A stretch of 59,838 nt of DNA from Alphaproteobacteria bacterium (GTDB lineage: Bacteria > Pseudomonadota > Alphaproteobacteria > UBA7985 > JAUIBT01). The stretch is taken from the NCBI GenBank assembly GCA_030428565.1, contig JAUIDR010000017.1:1-59838 (forward strand), written 5' to 3'. The notes under the pieces were generated by a model. The model saw only the letters and a program-made list of their open reading frames with translations. It was not told where the DNA came from and ran no database searches. A program made the translations under genes and the position numbers. This document shows positions 44,236-55,200 of this stretch, piece by piece (position 1 is the first letter of the stretch; each line of letters opens with the position of its first letter).

Positions 44236-44311
44236 TGGTGATCCCTACGGGATTCGAACCCGTGTTGCCGCCGTGAAAGGGCGGTGTCCTAGGCCTCTAG
44301 ACGAAGGGACC
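44236..44311 (-). tRNA. tRNA-Glu (anticodon TTC)
   Basis: A complete 76-base cloverleaf including an encoded CCA. The acceptor stem GGTCCCT pairs with AGGGATC (one G-T). The anticodon stem-loop carries CTTTCAC, anticodon TTC, decoding GAA/GAG. The T-arm is ACGGG-TTCGAAT-CCCGT. The discriminator base is A. A strong terminator follows. It stands alone between the DUF4344 and L,D-transpeptidase genes. Confidence 0.97.
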
Positions 44312-50044: not shown

Positions 50045-50944
50045 CTAAACGATGGGTTCAGCCCGCATCTCTATGGCGTCAGCGAAGCTAGTCGGGGCCT
50101 CTTGGGGGACGTTGTGGCCGACACCTGCCAAAATTCGCCGCTCATAGGGCCCGGCGAATCGGTGATATTCTTTATCCGTAGCGCTGGAAACTATGACGCC
50201 ATCATCGGCGCCCAGCAAGACCGTAGTGGGCACCGATATCACCGGCTGGGCTTCTAACCGATCTTCGATGGCCTGATAGGCCGGATCACCCGCCACCACG
50301 CCATAGCGATGCTGGTAGGAGTGCAGCACAACCTCGACAAAATCGGGGTTCTCAAAGGCCTCGGCGCTCTGGGTGTAGGTCGGCGCGTCAAAGTCCCAAG
50401 AAGGCGACCAAAGTTTCCAAAGATACCGGCAAAGTTCAAAGCGATTTTCCGTCAGGCCCGCCCGTCCGCGCGCTGTGTGAAAATAGTACTGGTACCAAAA
50501 GCGCGCCTCAGCATCTGGTGAGGCCGGTCGCCCCGCGCCTGGAATGTCGTGTATGTTATAACCCTGGCCCGCGCTTACCAGACCAACAACGCGTTCTGGC
50601 CACAGCGCCGCAACGATACAAGCGGCGCGTCCCCCCCAGTCGAAACCGCCCAGCACGGACGCCTCGATGTCCAGCGCGTCCATGAAGGCCAAAAGATCCG
50701 CCGCCAGCGCCGCCTGCTGGCCAGAGCGCGGGGTATCTGCCTGCAAAAAACGGGTCGGGCCATAGCCGCGCAAATAGGGCATGAGGCAGCGATAGCCCCG
50801 CCCTGCCAGGCGTTCACTGACGGCATCATAAGCATGAATATCGTAGGGAAAGCCGTGCAGCAGGATGACCGGCGGCCCAGCGGCCGGCCCCCGCTCAACA
50901 TAAGCAATTTCTAGGACGCCTGCGGCAACGCGCTTGATCTGCAC
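50045..50944 (-). CDS. Alpha/beta hydrolase, epoxide-hydrolase-like
   Basis: A 299-residue alpha/beta hydrolase. The oxyanion region is LLHGFPYD. The nucleophile elbow is GGFDWGG, giving Asp102 as nucleophile, the hallmark of epoxide hydrolases and haloalkane dehalogenases rather than esterases. The catalytic histidine is in GVGHNVPQE and the acid probably in LLGADDGVI. Which epoxide or halide it acts on cannot be told. It lies 5 bases downstream of the TerB gene, so the two are probably co-transcribed. Confidence 0.86.
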   Translation of the reverse strand: MQIKRVAAGVLEIAYVERGPAAGPPVILLHGFPYDIHAYDAVSERLAGRGYRCLMPYLRGYGPTRFLQADTPRSGQQAALAADLLAFMDALDIEASVLGGFDWGGRAACIVAALWPERVVGLVSAGQGYNIHDIPGAGRPASPDAEARFWYQYYFHTARGRAGLTENRFELCRYLWKLWSPSWDFDAPTYTQSAEAFENPDFVEVVLHSYQHRYGVVAGDPAYQAIEDRLEAQPVISVPTTVLLGADDGVIVSSATDKEYHRFAGPYERRILAGVGHNVPQEAPTSFADAIEMRAEPIV

Positions 50945-50949
50945 GGGGT

Positions 50950-51357
50950 CTAGGCGCGCATGTAGCGCGCGCGCGCGCCACGCTCGATCGCGGCGGCCGC
51001 CAAGCGGTCAACCCCGATGGCTTGGCGTAGAGCCATCAACAGCTCTGACTCCTCCACCGAGACGACGCTGTCCGCCGCCGCCACATCGCAGGCCAAAGCG
51101 TAGGCGGTCTCGCGCAAATGGCTGGGCAACATCTCGCAAATCAGCGTCAAGATGGTGTCGAGCCCGTCCTCGTCGGCCGCCAAAATCGCGGCGTACTGAT
51201 TGGACGCGTGGTGCAAATCTTCCAAGCGGTAGCCTTCAAACACGGGCAAGCGCTCTAAGAGCTGGGCCATGCGGTTGATCTCCACCTCGGCGACGTCGCC
51301 GTCCGCGGCCGCCACCAGGCGCATGGTATAAATCAGAGCGTCGTGATAATCGGCCAT
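50950..51357 (-). CDS. TerB family protein
   Basis: A 135-residue all-helical protein of the tellurite-resistance TerB fold. It shows duplicated acidic helices, LVAAADGDVAEVEINRMAQLL and VAAADSVVSVEESELLMALRQ, each with the conserved acidic positions of the family. Stand-alone TerB proteins are widespread and usually not tied to tellurite; their role is unclear. The ATG is preceded by GAAAGA. It pairs with the alpha/beta hydrolase gene downstream. Confidence 0.85.
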   Translation of the reverse strand: MADYHDALIYTMRLVAAADGDVAEVEINRMAQLLERLPVFEGYRLEDLHHASNQYAAILAADEDGLDTILTLICEMLPSHLRETAYALACDVAAADSVVSVEESELLMALRQAIGVDRLAAAAIERGARARYMRA

Positions 51358-51574
51358 GGGGTCTCTTTCTTGTTCGTTGGTCTTGTCATCGTTGGGTGCA
51401 GCGCCCTTACCCAGGGCGGGACGCGAGCGGGTCTTGGGCGAGTCTTGGGAGGGTCTTGAGCGGATCTAGTCTGCCATCCCAACTTAAGCGCTCGCCGAGG
51501 CATCAGCAAGATGATCGCACCGCTTTAGCTAAATCTTCACATGAGAATATTTATAGGTACATCTAGAGAACACA

Positions 51575-51593
51575 GCATGTACATTCTACATGC
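51575..51593. promoter_or_regulatory. Inverted repeat before the AT-rich islet gene
   Basis: GCATGTA (51575-51581) and TACATGC (51587-51593) form a perfect 7-base inverted repeat with a 5-base spacer, 22 bases before the ATG at 51615. It could be an operator or a hairpin in the leader. No regulator is known. Confidence 0.45.
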
Positions 51594-51614
51594 ACGCGGC
51601 TTAGGGAGTGCTGG

Positions 51615-51938
51615 ATGCGTAAGGGGAACATCTGGCGGATTACTTGGGTGAGTTTACTCGCCGCTTTTTGCAGCCTAGAGACCGTGTATCAGGCCAATAA
51701 TGCCCACATGTGGCACAAGACCAGTCAGCTCTACAAAGAATTTGAGCCTCAGCTAGTGGTGCCCAGTGTAGCTCGATTCAATTTGTTCGATATATATTAT
51801 TATTGCAATCAACCCATTGATAGCTGCCTGGAAAGGCGGCTCCGAGAAGGCGTCGCACCTGTTAGCAACCTGATTACAGCTCAAGATGAATGTTTGAATT
51901 CAAACTCATTTTATTGCCCAGCATATAAAGAAATATAA
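51615..51938 (+). CDS. Small exported or membrane-anchored protein of unknown function
   Basis: A 107-residue protein in a clearly AT-richer stretch than anything else in the window. The ATG is preceded by GGGAG. The N-terminus (RITWVSLLAAFCSLETVY) looks like a signal or anchor segment. The rest contains four cysteines (YYYCNQPIDSC, DECLNSN, FYCPAYKEI), which could form two disulfides outside the cytosol. No family recognised. A perfect palindrome begins right after the stop codon. Base composition suggests acquisition by transfer. Confidence 0.6.
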   Translation: MRKGNIWRITWVSLLAAFCSLETVYQANNAHMWHKTSQLYKEFEPQLVVPSVARFNLFDIYYYCNQPIDSCLERRLREGVAPVSNLITAQDECLNSNSFYCPAYKEI

Positions 51939-51958
51939 TTTGTTAATAAATTAACAAA
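51939..51958. terminator. Palindrome directly after the islet gene
   Basis: TTTGTTAAT (51939-51947) and ATTAACAAA (51950-51958) are perfect 9-base inverted repeats with a 2-base spacer, starting at the base after the stop codon. The stem is AT-rich and lacks a T run, so it is a weak terminator at best. It could equally be a protein-binding or recombination site. Confidence 0.4.
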
Positions 51959-52350
51959 TCTGAGCAATCATGACCTATTTAATAAAACGATATCTTTTTG
52001 TTTTATTGATATCAGACCAACTACTTCAAAAATGATTGCCACTTACGAAACTGTTCTACTAATTTGGCGTCGACGATCGTTCATTACTGGTTCTATTTTG
52101 TTCAGCATGCCAGATTGGACACATGAAAGTATTTGCTACGGGAGATTTCACAAAGCATTCAAACCCGAATTTATGAGGGAGGAGTGCTATATCACCAAAC
52201 TTGGAATGGAAAACGGCTAGTGTATTCACGGCGGCGCAAGCCTCGCGCGTCGCTCAATTTCGAGGCGACCACAGAGCTGAACGGGCAGACGGTAGAACGT
52301 TGAGCGACGTTTCGTTAATCGGCAAGACAGACGCTCTTGCTTGAACGCCT
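51959..52350. other. AT-rich tail of the islet and gap before the helicase gene
   Basis: The first 260 bases keep the low-GC composition and contain short open frames (for example 52032-52220, 62 codons, ending TKLGMENG) with no ribosome binding site or recognisable product. They may be remnants of decayed genes. From about 52220 the composition returns to GC-rich. Confidence 0.4.
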
Positions 52351-55200
52351 CTATTGGCCAGTGAAGAAGTGCGTAACATCAGACACCGCATCTTGCAGTC
52401 CAACGCGCTCCACCTCTAGCCCCTCGGGAAAGGCGCTGGTCAGTCGCGTTGGCAGCGCGCCATCCAACATGACAAAGACGCCGCGATCATCCTGGCGGCG
52501 AATGAGACGCCCAAAAGCCTGGCGCAGCTTGAAGCGAACCAACTGCTCATCATAGGCGCGTCCGCCAAACGCCTGACGGCGCGCGCGGTGAATGATGGTC
52601 GGTCGCGGCCAAGGCACGCGGTCCATGATGACCATGCGCAGCGCCAAGCCTGGGACGTCGATGCCATCGCGCAGCGCATCGGTTCCCATGAGGCAAGCGT
52701 GCGTGTCGCTGCGGAACATCTCGATCAGCGAGCCCGGGTCGCTGGCGTCAATGTGCTGCGCCAGCAAGCTTAAGCCCGCCTGTTCCAGGTCTTCGGCCAT
52801 CAGGCCGTGAACTTGGCGCATACGTGCGATGGAAGTAAACAGCCCCAGTGCGCCGCCGCCGCTGGCCTGCATCAGTGCTCGCATCGCCCCCGCCAGTTGT
52901 GCCGGGTCTTGCTTGTTGAGGTCGGTAACGACCAGAATGCGGGCCGCCTTGCCATAGTCAAAGGGCGAAGGATGGCGTGTCATCACCGGCGACTGCGGCA
53001 GGTGGCAAGCACCGGTGCGTTGCTCAGCCAAGCGCCAATCGGCCTCGACATCACCGCTGGTATCGCCCAGTGTTGCCGAGGTTATCAGAAGGCCGTGGCT
53101 TTGATAGCGCAAGGTCTGCATCAGCGGTTGGGTCGGATCGATGAAGTGGCGGAAAGCCCCCAAATCGCGATCTTGACCATCGATCCGCACCACCTCCAGC
53201 CAATCAACTTGCCCCTCTAGTGGCTCGTCGGACAAGAGGCTGGCGGTCATTGCACGCCAAGAGCGCAGCGGCTCGATTGCCCTTAGCGCCAGACTACGAA
53301 TAAGGCCTTCCAAACGCCGACGTTGGTCGCTGTCGAACTGCTCGGGCTGGTTGGCCAGCAGCTCGGCCAGCAGGCGTTCCAGTTCGACCAGCGGCTTTTC
53401 CAGCTTGCCCAGCGCTTCGTTCAGCGCCGCCGCCGCCTCGGCCAGCTCGGGCAGTACCGGGCGCACATCGCATTCCAGCGTATAGGGATCTTGCGGCTTG
53501 GCCGTGCGGGCGTAGACCTGCCGTCCCACCGCCAGCAAAAATTGTTCCACCGCGCCTTGGGGCTCTTGGGAGGCCAGACGCTTGGCCCAAAACGGTGCCG
53601 GCAAGCAGGTGGCCGAGAATATCGCCTGCTGGGTGGCACGATCGATTGCATCGTTTTCCAGCAACAGATCGTCAAGCCGCGATTGCAGTCCCCGGCGTCG
53701 GCCCGGCCGCGCGCGCCCATCCTCACGCCCCAACAGCCACCGGCGCATCTCTTGCGTTTCACGCCCCGTCAGCCGCGCACAAAATACCGAGTCCGCCGCA
53801 TCGAACAGATGGTGGCCCTCGTCGAAGACATAGCGGGTCGGCAGGCTGTTCTCGCTGGCTTGCTGGCTGGCTGGCTGACTGGCTGGCACGCTGGGACCAA
53901 TGGCCTGGGTGGCAGCTTGATGCAGCACAAGAGCATGATTGGCGATGACCAGCTTGGCCTGGCGCGCTTTGCGGATCGAGCGCTCAACATAACAGCGCCG
54001 ATAGTGGTTACAGGCCGCAAACAGGCACTCACCGCGATGATCGGCCAGCTCGCCCAGGGCGGCGCCGGAAAAGAGTTCGCCCATCCAGACCGGCAGATCG
54101 CCGCCCACCAACTCGCCCGAACGGCTGGCTTGCACCCAGCGCGCCATTAGCGCCAAGAACACCAAATCACGCGGACGCAGCGTCATCGACTGACTGGCTT
54201 CTTCGAAGTTCATCAGACAAAGGTAGTTTTCGCGGCCCTTGCGCACCACGACCTGGCGCTGTTTCTGGGCGGGCTCGGGATACAGGCGGTCCAGTTCTTG
54301 ATCCAGTTGGCCCTGCAACACGCGCGTGAAGGTCGACAGCCAAACGCTGCCTTTATTTTTGTCCGCCCAGACGCTGGCCGGGGCCAGATAGCCCAGCGTC
54401 TTGCCCGTGCCCGTGCCCGCCTCGGCCAACACGGTCTGCGGCTCGCCAAAGGCCTGGGCTGGGGCAAAGGCATCAGCCACCGCTTGCGCGTAGGCGGCTT
54501 GTTGGGGGCGAATTTCGGCTTGGCTGCCCGCAGCGATCAAATCGGCCAGCCGCCCGCGCACTTCATCAGCGCGCAAGGGCTGCGTACCCGGCGGATCAAC
54601 GGCGCCACTGTCTTCCCACTCGGGCAGGTCGCGCCAGACCGCAAGATTGCGCTGGGCATTGGCTTGGCCCCCCAAACCTTTGGCCCGCAAGATGGCGTTG
54701 ACGTAGGGCGACCAGGGCCAATCGGCTTCGCTCAAAACCTGTGCCAGGCCAACGATGGCGCCTTGTTTTAGTGGCAAGCTCGCGTCTAGTTCGCGCAGCA
54801 AGAGGTTGGCCGCCTCCATTAAGACCTGTGCTTGCTGGTAATCATCGTCTGGGACCGGTAAATCCAGCGCCAGCGCCAGGCCTTGCGGCGAGGGCGCGCA
54901 GCTCTGCGCCGGGCGCACAAAGGCAAACAGCTCCAACACATCCAGCCCCTTGAGACCCGACAGACCCAAACGGCGTTTGGTCAGTCCCGCATGGCAAAAG
55001 ATCAGGGCTCCGGCTTGTCCTAGGCGCGAGACCTCGCTAGGCTCAAGCTTTCGCAGCCGCAATTGGCCGCTTTCGACTTCATCCAACAGACCCAGGCCCG
55101 TGTCGGCCACGTAGACCCAGGCATAGCCGGTTCTTGCCAGAACCACGGCTGCGCTTGGCGAGAGCTGTTTGGGGTCAAAATCAGGGGTCACGGCTACCAA
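52351..55200 (-). CDS. DinG/XPD-like ATP-dependent DNA helicase
   Basis: A 949-residue superfamily 2 helicase. Walker A is AEAGTGTGKTLGYLAP and the DEAH box is FDEGHHLFDAAD. Four cysteines between them (CLMNF, then CLFAACNHYRRC) fit the [4Fe-4S] cluster site of the XPD/DinG family. The C-terminal motifs include LLITSATLGDTSGD, LGLFTSIARM and FKLRQAFGRLIRRQDDRG. The first 220 residues are an N-terminal region with a segment (LDVLELFAFVRP) reminiscent of a degenerate exonuclease-type domain seen in some DinG proteins. A Gln/Ser/Ala insertion (ASQPASQQAS) just before the DEAH box is encoded by a tetranucleotide repeat. Probable role in DNA repair. Confidence 0.88.
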   Translation of the reverse strand: MVAVTPDFDPKQLSPSAAVVLARTGYAWVYVADTGLGLLDEVESGQLRLRKLEPSEVSRLGQAGALIFCHAGLTKRRLGLSGLKGLDVLELFAFVRPAQSCAPSPQGLALALDLPVPDDDYQQAQVLMEAANLLLRELDASLPLKQGAIVGLAQVLSEADWPWSPYVNAILRAKGLGGQANAQRNLAVWRDLPEWEDSGAVDPPGTQPLRADEVRGRLADLIAAGSQAEIRPQQAAYAQAVADAFAPAQAFGEPQTVLAEAGTGTGKTLGYLAPASVWADKNKGSVWLSTFTRVLQGQLDQELDRLYPEPAQKQRQVVVRKGRENYLCLMNFEEASQSMTLRPRDLVFLALMARWVQASRSGELVGGDLPVWMGELFSGAALGELADHRGECLFAACNHYRRCYVERSIRKARQAKLVIANHALVLHQAATQAIGPSVPASQPASQQASENSLPTRYVFDEGHHLFDAADSVFCARLTGRETQEMRRWLLGREDGRARPGRRRGLQSRLDDLLLENDAIDRATQQAIFSATCLPAPFWAKRLASQEPQGAVEQFLLAVGRQVYARTAKPQDPYTLECDVRPVLPELAEAAAALNEALGKLEKPLVELERLLAELLANQPEQFDSDQRRRLEGLIRSLALRAIEPLRSWRAMTASLLSDEPLEGQVDWLEVVRIDGQDRDLGAFRHFIDPTQPLMQTLRYQSHGLLITSATLGDTSGDVEADWRLAEQRTGACHLPQSPVMTRHPSPFDYGKAARILVVTDLNKQDPAQLAGAMRALMQASGGGALGLFTSIARMRQVHGLMAEDLEQAGLSLLAQHIDASDPGSLIEMFRSDTHACLMGTDALRDGIDVPGLALRMVIMDRVPWPRPTIIHRARRQAFGGRAYDEQLVRFKLRQAFGRLIRRQDDRGVFVMLDGALPTRLTSAFPEGLEVERVGLQDAVSDVTHFFTGQ
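53862..53889 (-). repeat. GCTG tetranucleotide repeat in the helicase gene
   Basis: Four perfect GCTG units at 53862-53877, with imperfect units on both sides (53853-53889). It lies within the coding frame. Unlike the other repeats in this window the unit is not a multiple of three, so slippage would shift the frame. Confidence 0.8.

What the first reader, a model, noticed from the sequence alone, without database searches (positions are those of the whole stretch)
51540..52215. AT-rich islet with a self-contained unknown small secreted-protein gene
Over about 670 bases the composition drops sharply against a GC-rich background. The islet holds a 107-codon gene with a good ribosome binding site, a signal-like N-terminus and four cysteines in the presumed exported part. 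A perfect 7-base inverted repeat lies just upstream and a perfect 9-base palindrome starts right after the stop codon. It looks like a discrete transferred unit between conserved genes (terB, helicase). I recognise no family, so this is the best candidate for something undescribed.
Basis: partly seen in the sequence, partly recalled or inferred. Interest (0 to 1): 0.55.

Follow-up and report, generated by a model that had tools for sequence, protein, structure and literature searches.

The report
Broken relic of a lipase-partner gene pair
The AT-rich islet is not a complete small gene but the decayed remains of a two-gene unit, a membrane-anchored protein plus a lipase, which a sister species still carries intact at the same place; the pair resembles known toxin and self-protection pairs, but this was not tested.

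Summary
The islet is real: 40.5% G+C against 60.5% for the window, with an open 107-codon frame. The reading as a self-contained small secreted-protein gene is wrong. A sister species (G001) carries in the same terB-helicase gap an intact 201-codon gene, 77% identical over the 107 residues, followed by an intact lipase-like gene (Lipase_3, above Pfam cut-off). In the window the 201-codon frame is interrupted by one TAA after codon 107 and then runs on in the same frame to its natural end. The lipase is reduced to about 40 codons without its start codon. A second sister species (G002) has the empty site. Among the genomes searched the family occurs only in this genus: six copies in two of three species. 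Full-length copies have an N-terminal membrane segment and six invariant cysteines, and nearly all have a lipase frame directly behind. Copies share near-identical starts and strongly divergent ends. Both lipases in the window's genome are broken; two of its three partner genes are intact. Best reading: relic of a lipase and membrane-immunity pair, arranged like TslA/TilA or T6SS Tle/Tli. T6SS sheath and VirB4 were not found, so delivery is unknown.

The parts
51615..51938 (+). N-terminal 107 codons of a disrupted 201-codon gene (hydrophobic anchor, 4 of the 6 family cysteines), ending at an in-frame TAA (51936-51938)
   Evidence: ORF; 77% identical to the intact G001 copy; family profile matches 51618-52187, 231.7 bits, with 1 TAA inside; codon alignment with G001
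51939..52220 (+). C-terminal continuation in the same frame (93 codons and natural stop TAG), with the last two family cysteines
   Evidence: aligned codon by codon with G001, 201 codons each; piece 51939-52217 matches profile A2, E 1.5e-17; 63% identical
52213..52344 (+). Remnant of the start of the lipase gene; start codon lost; most of the gene including the catalytic motif is missing
   Evidence: alignment with L044:3240-4450; frame 52177-52341 matches lipase profile A3 weakly (E 0.0021)
51938..51959 (.). 22-base palindrome (two 10-base arms), within the fast-evolving middle of the gene; not conserved in G001
50950..51357 (-). terB-like gene, conserved left neighbour
   Evidence: Pfam TerB; 35 of 61 genomes have a match
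52351..55200 (-). Helicase gene (Helicase_C_2), conserved right neighbour
   Evidence: Helicase_C_2 E 2e-24; (helicase found beside terB in 22 of 30 loci)

Best explanation
Shown: the islet is an inactivated remnant of a two-gene cassette, a membrane-anchored six-cysteine protein followed directly by a lipase-like alpha/beta-hydrolase, which sits intact between terB and the helicase in a sister species. Inferred: in the intact state the lipase damages membranes from the periplasmic side (its own kin's or a rival's), and the upstream protein, anchored by its N-terminus with a disulphide-bonded domain in the periplasm, binds and neutralises it. The outer part of the partner diversifies to match different lipases. 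In the window's species the lipases have decayed and some partners are kept, as happens with immunity genes. Delivery of the lipase is unexplained. My estimate for the relic alone is 0.93; the number below is for relic plus lipase-immunity function.
For: Relic. Empty site in G002. Pairing: in the intact loci (G000:C30, G001:C121, G001:C142) a lipase frame starts within about 30 bases of the end of an upstream membrane-protein gene or overlaps it, and the window remnant shows the same order. Topology: a hydrophobic segment behind a short N-terminus with 3-10 basic residues, six cysteines invariant in 5 of 5 full-length rows, no hydrophobic N-terminus on the C142 lipase. Motif GHSLGG / GLSLGG present in 3 of 3 lipase rows; Lipase_3 above the curated cut-off for the C142 lipase (27.4 bits, cut-off 22) and marginally for the C30 fragment (22.1), below it for C121 (17.2). 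Asymmetric decay in G000: C30 lipase has an in-frame TGA before the motif, C104 lipase truncated; partner genes of 206 and 231 codons intact at C30. Diversification: C30 against C121 shows 0.94-0.98 identity over the start of the membrane gene, 0.38-0.56 over its remaining 450 bases, then 0.74-1.0 in the lipase. Precedent read: TslA, a phospholipase with immunity lipoprotein TilA encoded directly upstream, with a variable number of TilA homologues (PMC10730906, abstract and passages).
Against: No secretion route: T6SS VipB absent in 5 of 5 genomes and VirB4-type family absent in 3 of 3. Neutralisation, toxicity and lipase activity are untested. The partner matches no known immunity family and no solved structure. 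The 231-codon copy at C30 has no lipase behind it. The C30 and second C121 lipases are near-identical over the part available while their upstream partners differ strongly, which is not what a strict cognate lock predicts, although the C30 lipase is broken and the 3' part of the C121 copy is missing at the contig end. Structure models are poor (mean pLDDT 41.7 and 43.4). The stops could be assembly errors; reads were not available. The sample is four loci in two genomes.
Confidence: 0.55

Rival explanations
1. The 107-residue ORF is now a working shortened protein (anchor plus four cysteines) kept as an orphan inhibitor or for some other use.
For: Codons 1-107 show dN/dS 0.28 against G001; start and upstream GGAG conserved.
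Against: The last 68 codons, beyond the stop, show the same constraint (0.27), so the constraint acted on the full-length protein for most of the divergence; two of six invariant cysteines and the C-terminal part are lost.
Confidence: 0.12
2. The upstream protein is a helper of the lipase (foldase, anchor or adaptor) and the pair is an ordinary lipolytic unit.
For: Conserved adjacency and order; lipase-specific foldases are also membrane-anchored periplasmic proteins (recalled, from no call).
Against: No foldase among Pfam matches at E up to 1; the C142 lipase lacks an N-terminal hydrophobic export signal; partners stay intact where lipases are broken; strong divergence of the partner's outer part is unexpected for a helper.
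Confidence: 0.22
3. A phage-sensing or contact-sensing abortive unit: the variable outer domain senses, the cytoplasmic lipase damages the cell's own membrane.
For: No export signal on the lipase and no T6SS sheath or VirB4 found; variable outer domain, conserved anchor.
Against: No PADLOC match, no defence neighbours identified, no cytoplasmic coupling domain beyond a short N-terminus.
Confidence: 0.1

Closest known systems
TslA/TilA (T7SS phospholipase and immunity lipoprotein, Staphylococcus aureus; PMC10730906, abstract and passages)
   Same: Immunity gene directly upstream of a lipase gene, partner membrane-bound outside the cytoplasm, variable number of partner copies. The lipases here also have a weak similarity to the N-terminal part of NCBIfam SA1320_fam (E 2e-10, below cut-off), whose relation to TslA was not established.
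   Different: No targeting domain recognised, partner is not a DUF576 lipoprotein (no such Pfam match), alphaproteobacterial host, no secretion system identified.
T6SS Tle lipase effectors with Tli/Tsi periplasmic immunity proteins (general features recalled; listing only)
   Same: Lipase without signal peptide beside a probably membrane-anchored periplasmic protein.
   Different: VipB sheath gene not found in any of 5 genomes searched; VgrG-related PF05954 not found in G000 or G001.
X-T4SS effectors and X-Tfi immunity proteins (PMC6536674, passages)
   Same: Immunity gene usually upstream of its effector; periplasmic inhibitors.
   Different: VirB4-type family PF03135 not found in 3 of 3 genomes; an XVIPCD domain was not tested for specifically.

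Membership tests
Lipase_3 / GXSXG hydrolases (for the partner lipase) | Nucleophile elbow GXSXG and profile match over curated cut-off | tested here: met
   C142 lipase 27.4 bits, cut-off 22; C30 fragment 22.1; C121 lip1 17.2, below cut-off. GHSLGG/GLSLGG in alignment A3. The window remnant itself lacks the motif.
T6SS lipase effector and immunity pair | T6SS present in the genome (VipB/TssC) | tested here: not met
   PF05943: 0 of 5 genomes; control rings in E. coli
T6SS lipase effector and immunity pair | Toxicity of the lipase and neutralisation by the partner | not testable with these tools
   needs experiment
X-T4SS effector and immunity pair | VirB4 ATPase in the genome | tested here: not met
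   PF03135: 0 of 3 genomes; control rings in Caulobacter vibrioides
TslA/TilA | TilA-type (DUF576) lipoprotein upstream | tested here: not met
   No DUF576 match; only DUF1206 at E about 0.3, far below cut-off
Any known protein family for the 201-231 aa partner | Match in Pfam, NCBIfam, PHROGs, PADLOC or PDB sequences | tested here: not met
   only weak matches (Pfam DUF1206 E 0.3, NCBIfam Wzy_O6_O28 E 0.024), far below cut-offs
   Same-frame continuation under the same constraint and intact 201-codon orthologue

The most novel reading that the evidence does not exclude
A genus-restricted family of recombining gene pairs in which a nearly constant membrane anchor carries a strongly variable six-cysteine outer domain, paired with a lipase that needs no known secretion system: either a new contact-dependent lipase weapon with diversifying immunity, or a surface-sensing abortive lipase system.
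Probability: 0.15. Interest if true: 0.65.

Novelty: new member of a known kind. Interest (0 to 1): 0.3.

Why it matters
It shows that a short ORF in a compositional islet with good start signals can be half of a broken gene, which one comparison with a sister species reveals. It also exposes a small, fast-diversifying lipase-partner family absent from the family libraries searched, in a lineage where no T6SS sheath or VirB4 was found. If the lipase is an antibacterial toxin, its route of delivery would be a new question.

Tried and rejected
Viral relative L040: matched 25 residues in a repetitive phage-like stretch, taken as chance and dropped. Weak genome hits at E 0.02-0.5 (G010, G059, G057, G033, G028, G025) and at E about 0.005 (G213 with three stops, G352) were not pursued and treated as chance; L049 of G352 gave E 0.0014 in the local profile search, also treated as chance. 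The G001:C49 hit (E 0.33) was fetched as L046 and gave no profile match. G332 and G039 lipase hits are weak and were treated as general hydrolase similarity. No match in plasmids or phages for the 107-residue protein and for the C121 lipase, nor in plasmids for the 206-aa protein, which was not searched in phages; none in viral contigs by profile. Rfam: nothing over 50500-53000. Structure predictions were too poor for a fold search, so none was run. A regulatory role for the two palindromes was rejected because neither is conserved. In the other two long terB-helicase gaps (G006 and G025) the inserts are unrelated ORFs.

A published description of this family was not exhaustively sought: three literature searches aimed at lipase effectors and immunity proteins; two papers were read in passages.

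Full report
Observation. The islet 51540-52215 has a G+C content of 0.405 against 0.605 for the window, and only one of 1184 sliding windows of its length is lower, one that overlaps it. The 107-codon ORF 51615-51938 exists. The 7-base inverted repeat upstream is ordinary: 42% of dinucleotide shuffles hold at least one such pair. The palindrome at the stop is longer than reported (10-base arms, 2-base loop) and rarer (0.7% of 300 shuffles), but neither repeat is conserved in the sister species.

What it is. The 107-residue protein matches no Pfam or NCBIfam family at E up to 1, no PHROG at E up to 0.1, and no plasmid or phage record. Among 61 genomes (own and 60 relatives) the own genome and G001, of the same genus, have strong matches; G002, the third of the genus, has none; six other genomes match at E 0.02 or worse. 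In genome contigs one record encodes a relative: contig JAUIHE010000005.1 of an alphaproteobacterial MAG; its length, 53,907, and its match equal those of G001:C142, so I take them for the same contig. There the gene has 201 codons from the same start (213 from an upstream ATG), lies between terB and the helicase, and is followed by a lipase-like gene of 308 codons. The lipase has the GHSLGG motif and passes the Pfam cut-off for Lipase_3 (27.4 bits, cut-off 22).

Decay in the window. A profile of the family (which includes the window's own 107 residues as one of six rows) matches 51618-52187 at 231.7 bits with exactly one TAA inside. Codon by codon the window and G001 align over 201 codons without gaps. 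dN/dS is 0.28 for codons 1-107, about 1.1 for the 25 codons after the stop, and 0.27 for the last 68. The equal constraint before and after the stop says that selection acted on the whole protein for most of the divergence, so the stop is probably recent. Flanking genes are more constrained (terB 0.018, helicase 0.047, abhydrolase 0.13). Behind it, about 40 codons of the lipase remain, without the start codon, before similarity ends. The synonymous divergence of the islet (0.46-0.57) is lower than that of its neighbours (0.80-1.22); composition bias or later exchange could cause this and I did not separate them.

Site. I gave 30 terB loci (of 35 genomes with a match) to tblastn. The helicase was found beside terB in 22 of them; in 19 of these 22 the gap, measured from match ends, is about 60-280 bp, in G002 about 97. 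The three long gaps are the window, G006 (an unrelated methyltransferase-like ORF, name by eye) and G025 (an unrelated ORF). G001 is not among the 22 because its fetched flank ended before the helicase, which one search shows beyond the lipase. So the cassette is an extra unit seen only in G000 and G001. No transposase or bounding repeat was identified in the stretch that I read; the only tRNA in the window is at 44236-44311.

Family. In the three genomes of the genus the profile finds six copies: three in G000, three in G001, none in G002. In a draw of 385 genomes of the class only G000 scored well (two others near E 0.005, one of them with three stops), and in 398 of the phylum only G000 (the draws overlap, and G001 is not listed in either). 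All five full-length rows have a hydrophobic segment near the N-terminus behind 3-10 basic residues, and six invariant cysteines. The AT-rich composition goes with the gene family: four intact copies have G+C 0.39-0.41, while the lipases have 0.51-0.54 and a fifth copy, of 231 codons, 0.58. Lipase frames lie directly behind partner genes at C30, C121 (two) and C142; the 231-codon copy has none behind it.

Mosaic structure. Two partner genes in G001:C121 share 168 identical bases and then fall to 0.3-0.5 identity. G000:C30 against the second C121 pair shows 0.94-0.98 over the anchor part, 0.38-0.56 over the next 450 bases, and 0.74-1.0 in the lipase, including 127 identical bases up to the contig end; the neighbouring holA-like gene (name by eye) is at 0.72-0.96. 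The anchor is thus nearly constant and the outer domain exchanged or very fast-evolving. The window against G001:C142 shows a milder dip in the middle of the gene.

Mechanism. Shown: gene order, hydrophobic segment, catalytic motif, decay, variability. Inferred: the lipase attacks membranes from outside the cytoplasm and the anchored partner neutralises it there. In the window's genome both lipases are broken (C104 truncated; C30 with an in-frame TGA before the motif and no ATG in frame near its expected start) while two of three partner genes are intact, as expected if partners protect; the numbers are small. The closest described arrangement that I read is TslA/TilA (PMC10730906, abstract and passages). 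X-Tfi genes also lie usually upstream of their effectors (PMC6536674, passages). Against a secretion-system effector, VipB was not found in 5 of 5 genomes and VirB4-type PF03135 not in 3 of 3; the VgrG-related family PF05954 gave one match below cut-off, in G002 only. Structure predictions were poor; only the stretch around the lipase motif was moderately confident.

Verdict. The relic reading is close to certain on sequence grounds (my estimate 0.93). The lipase-immunity reading is the likeliest function (about 0.55), with helper and sensing readings as rivals.

Noticed in passing
window 51414-51468: Imperfect 11-base tandem repeats (GGGTCTTGGGC-like, four overlapping 22-base copies) in the spacer upstream of terB, not conserved in G001.
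   Followed up: no
L042:6119-6200: Short GATGGTGTGGGGCCAC-like repeats upstream of the C30 partner gene, seen by eye; repetitive DNA also lies upstream of the C121 copies.
   Followed up: no
L042:7268-7394 and L043:1-127 (minus strand): 127 bases identical between two species over the lipase core, although the neighbouring holA-like gene is only 0.72-0.96 identical: recent exchange or gene conversion is possible.
   Followed up: partly
L014:731-1522 and L022:682-1302: Two other genomes carry unrelated genes in the same terB-helicase gap, so the gap tolerates insertions.
   Followed up: partly
L042:7962-8654: A 231-codon family member with a Gly/Ser-rich N-terminal extension and G+C of 0.58, without a lipase behind it: a candidate orphan partner.
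   Followed up: partly
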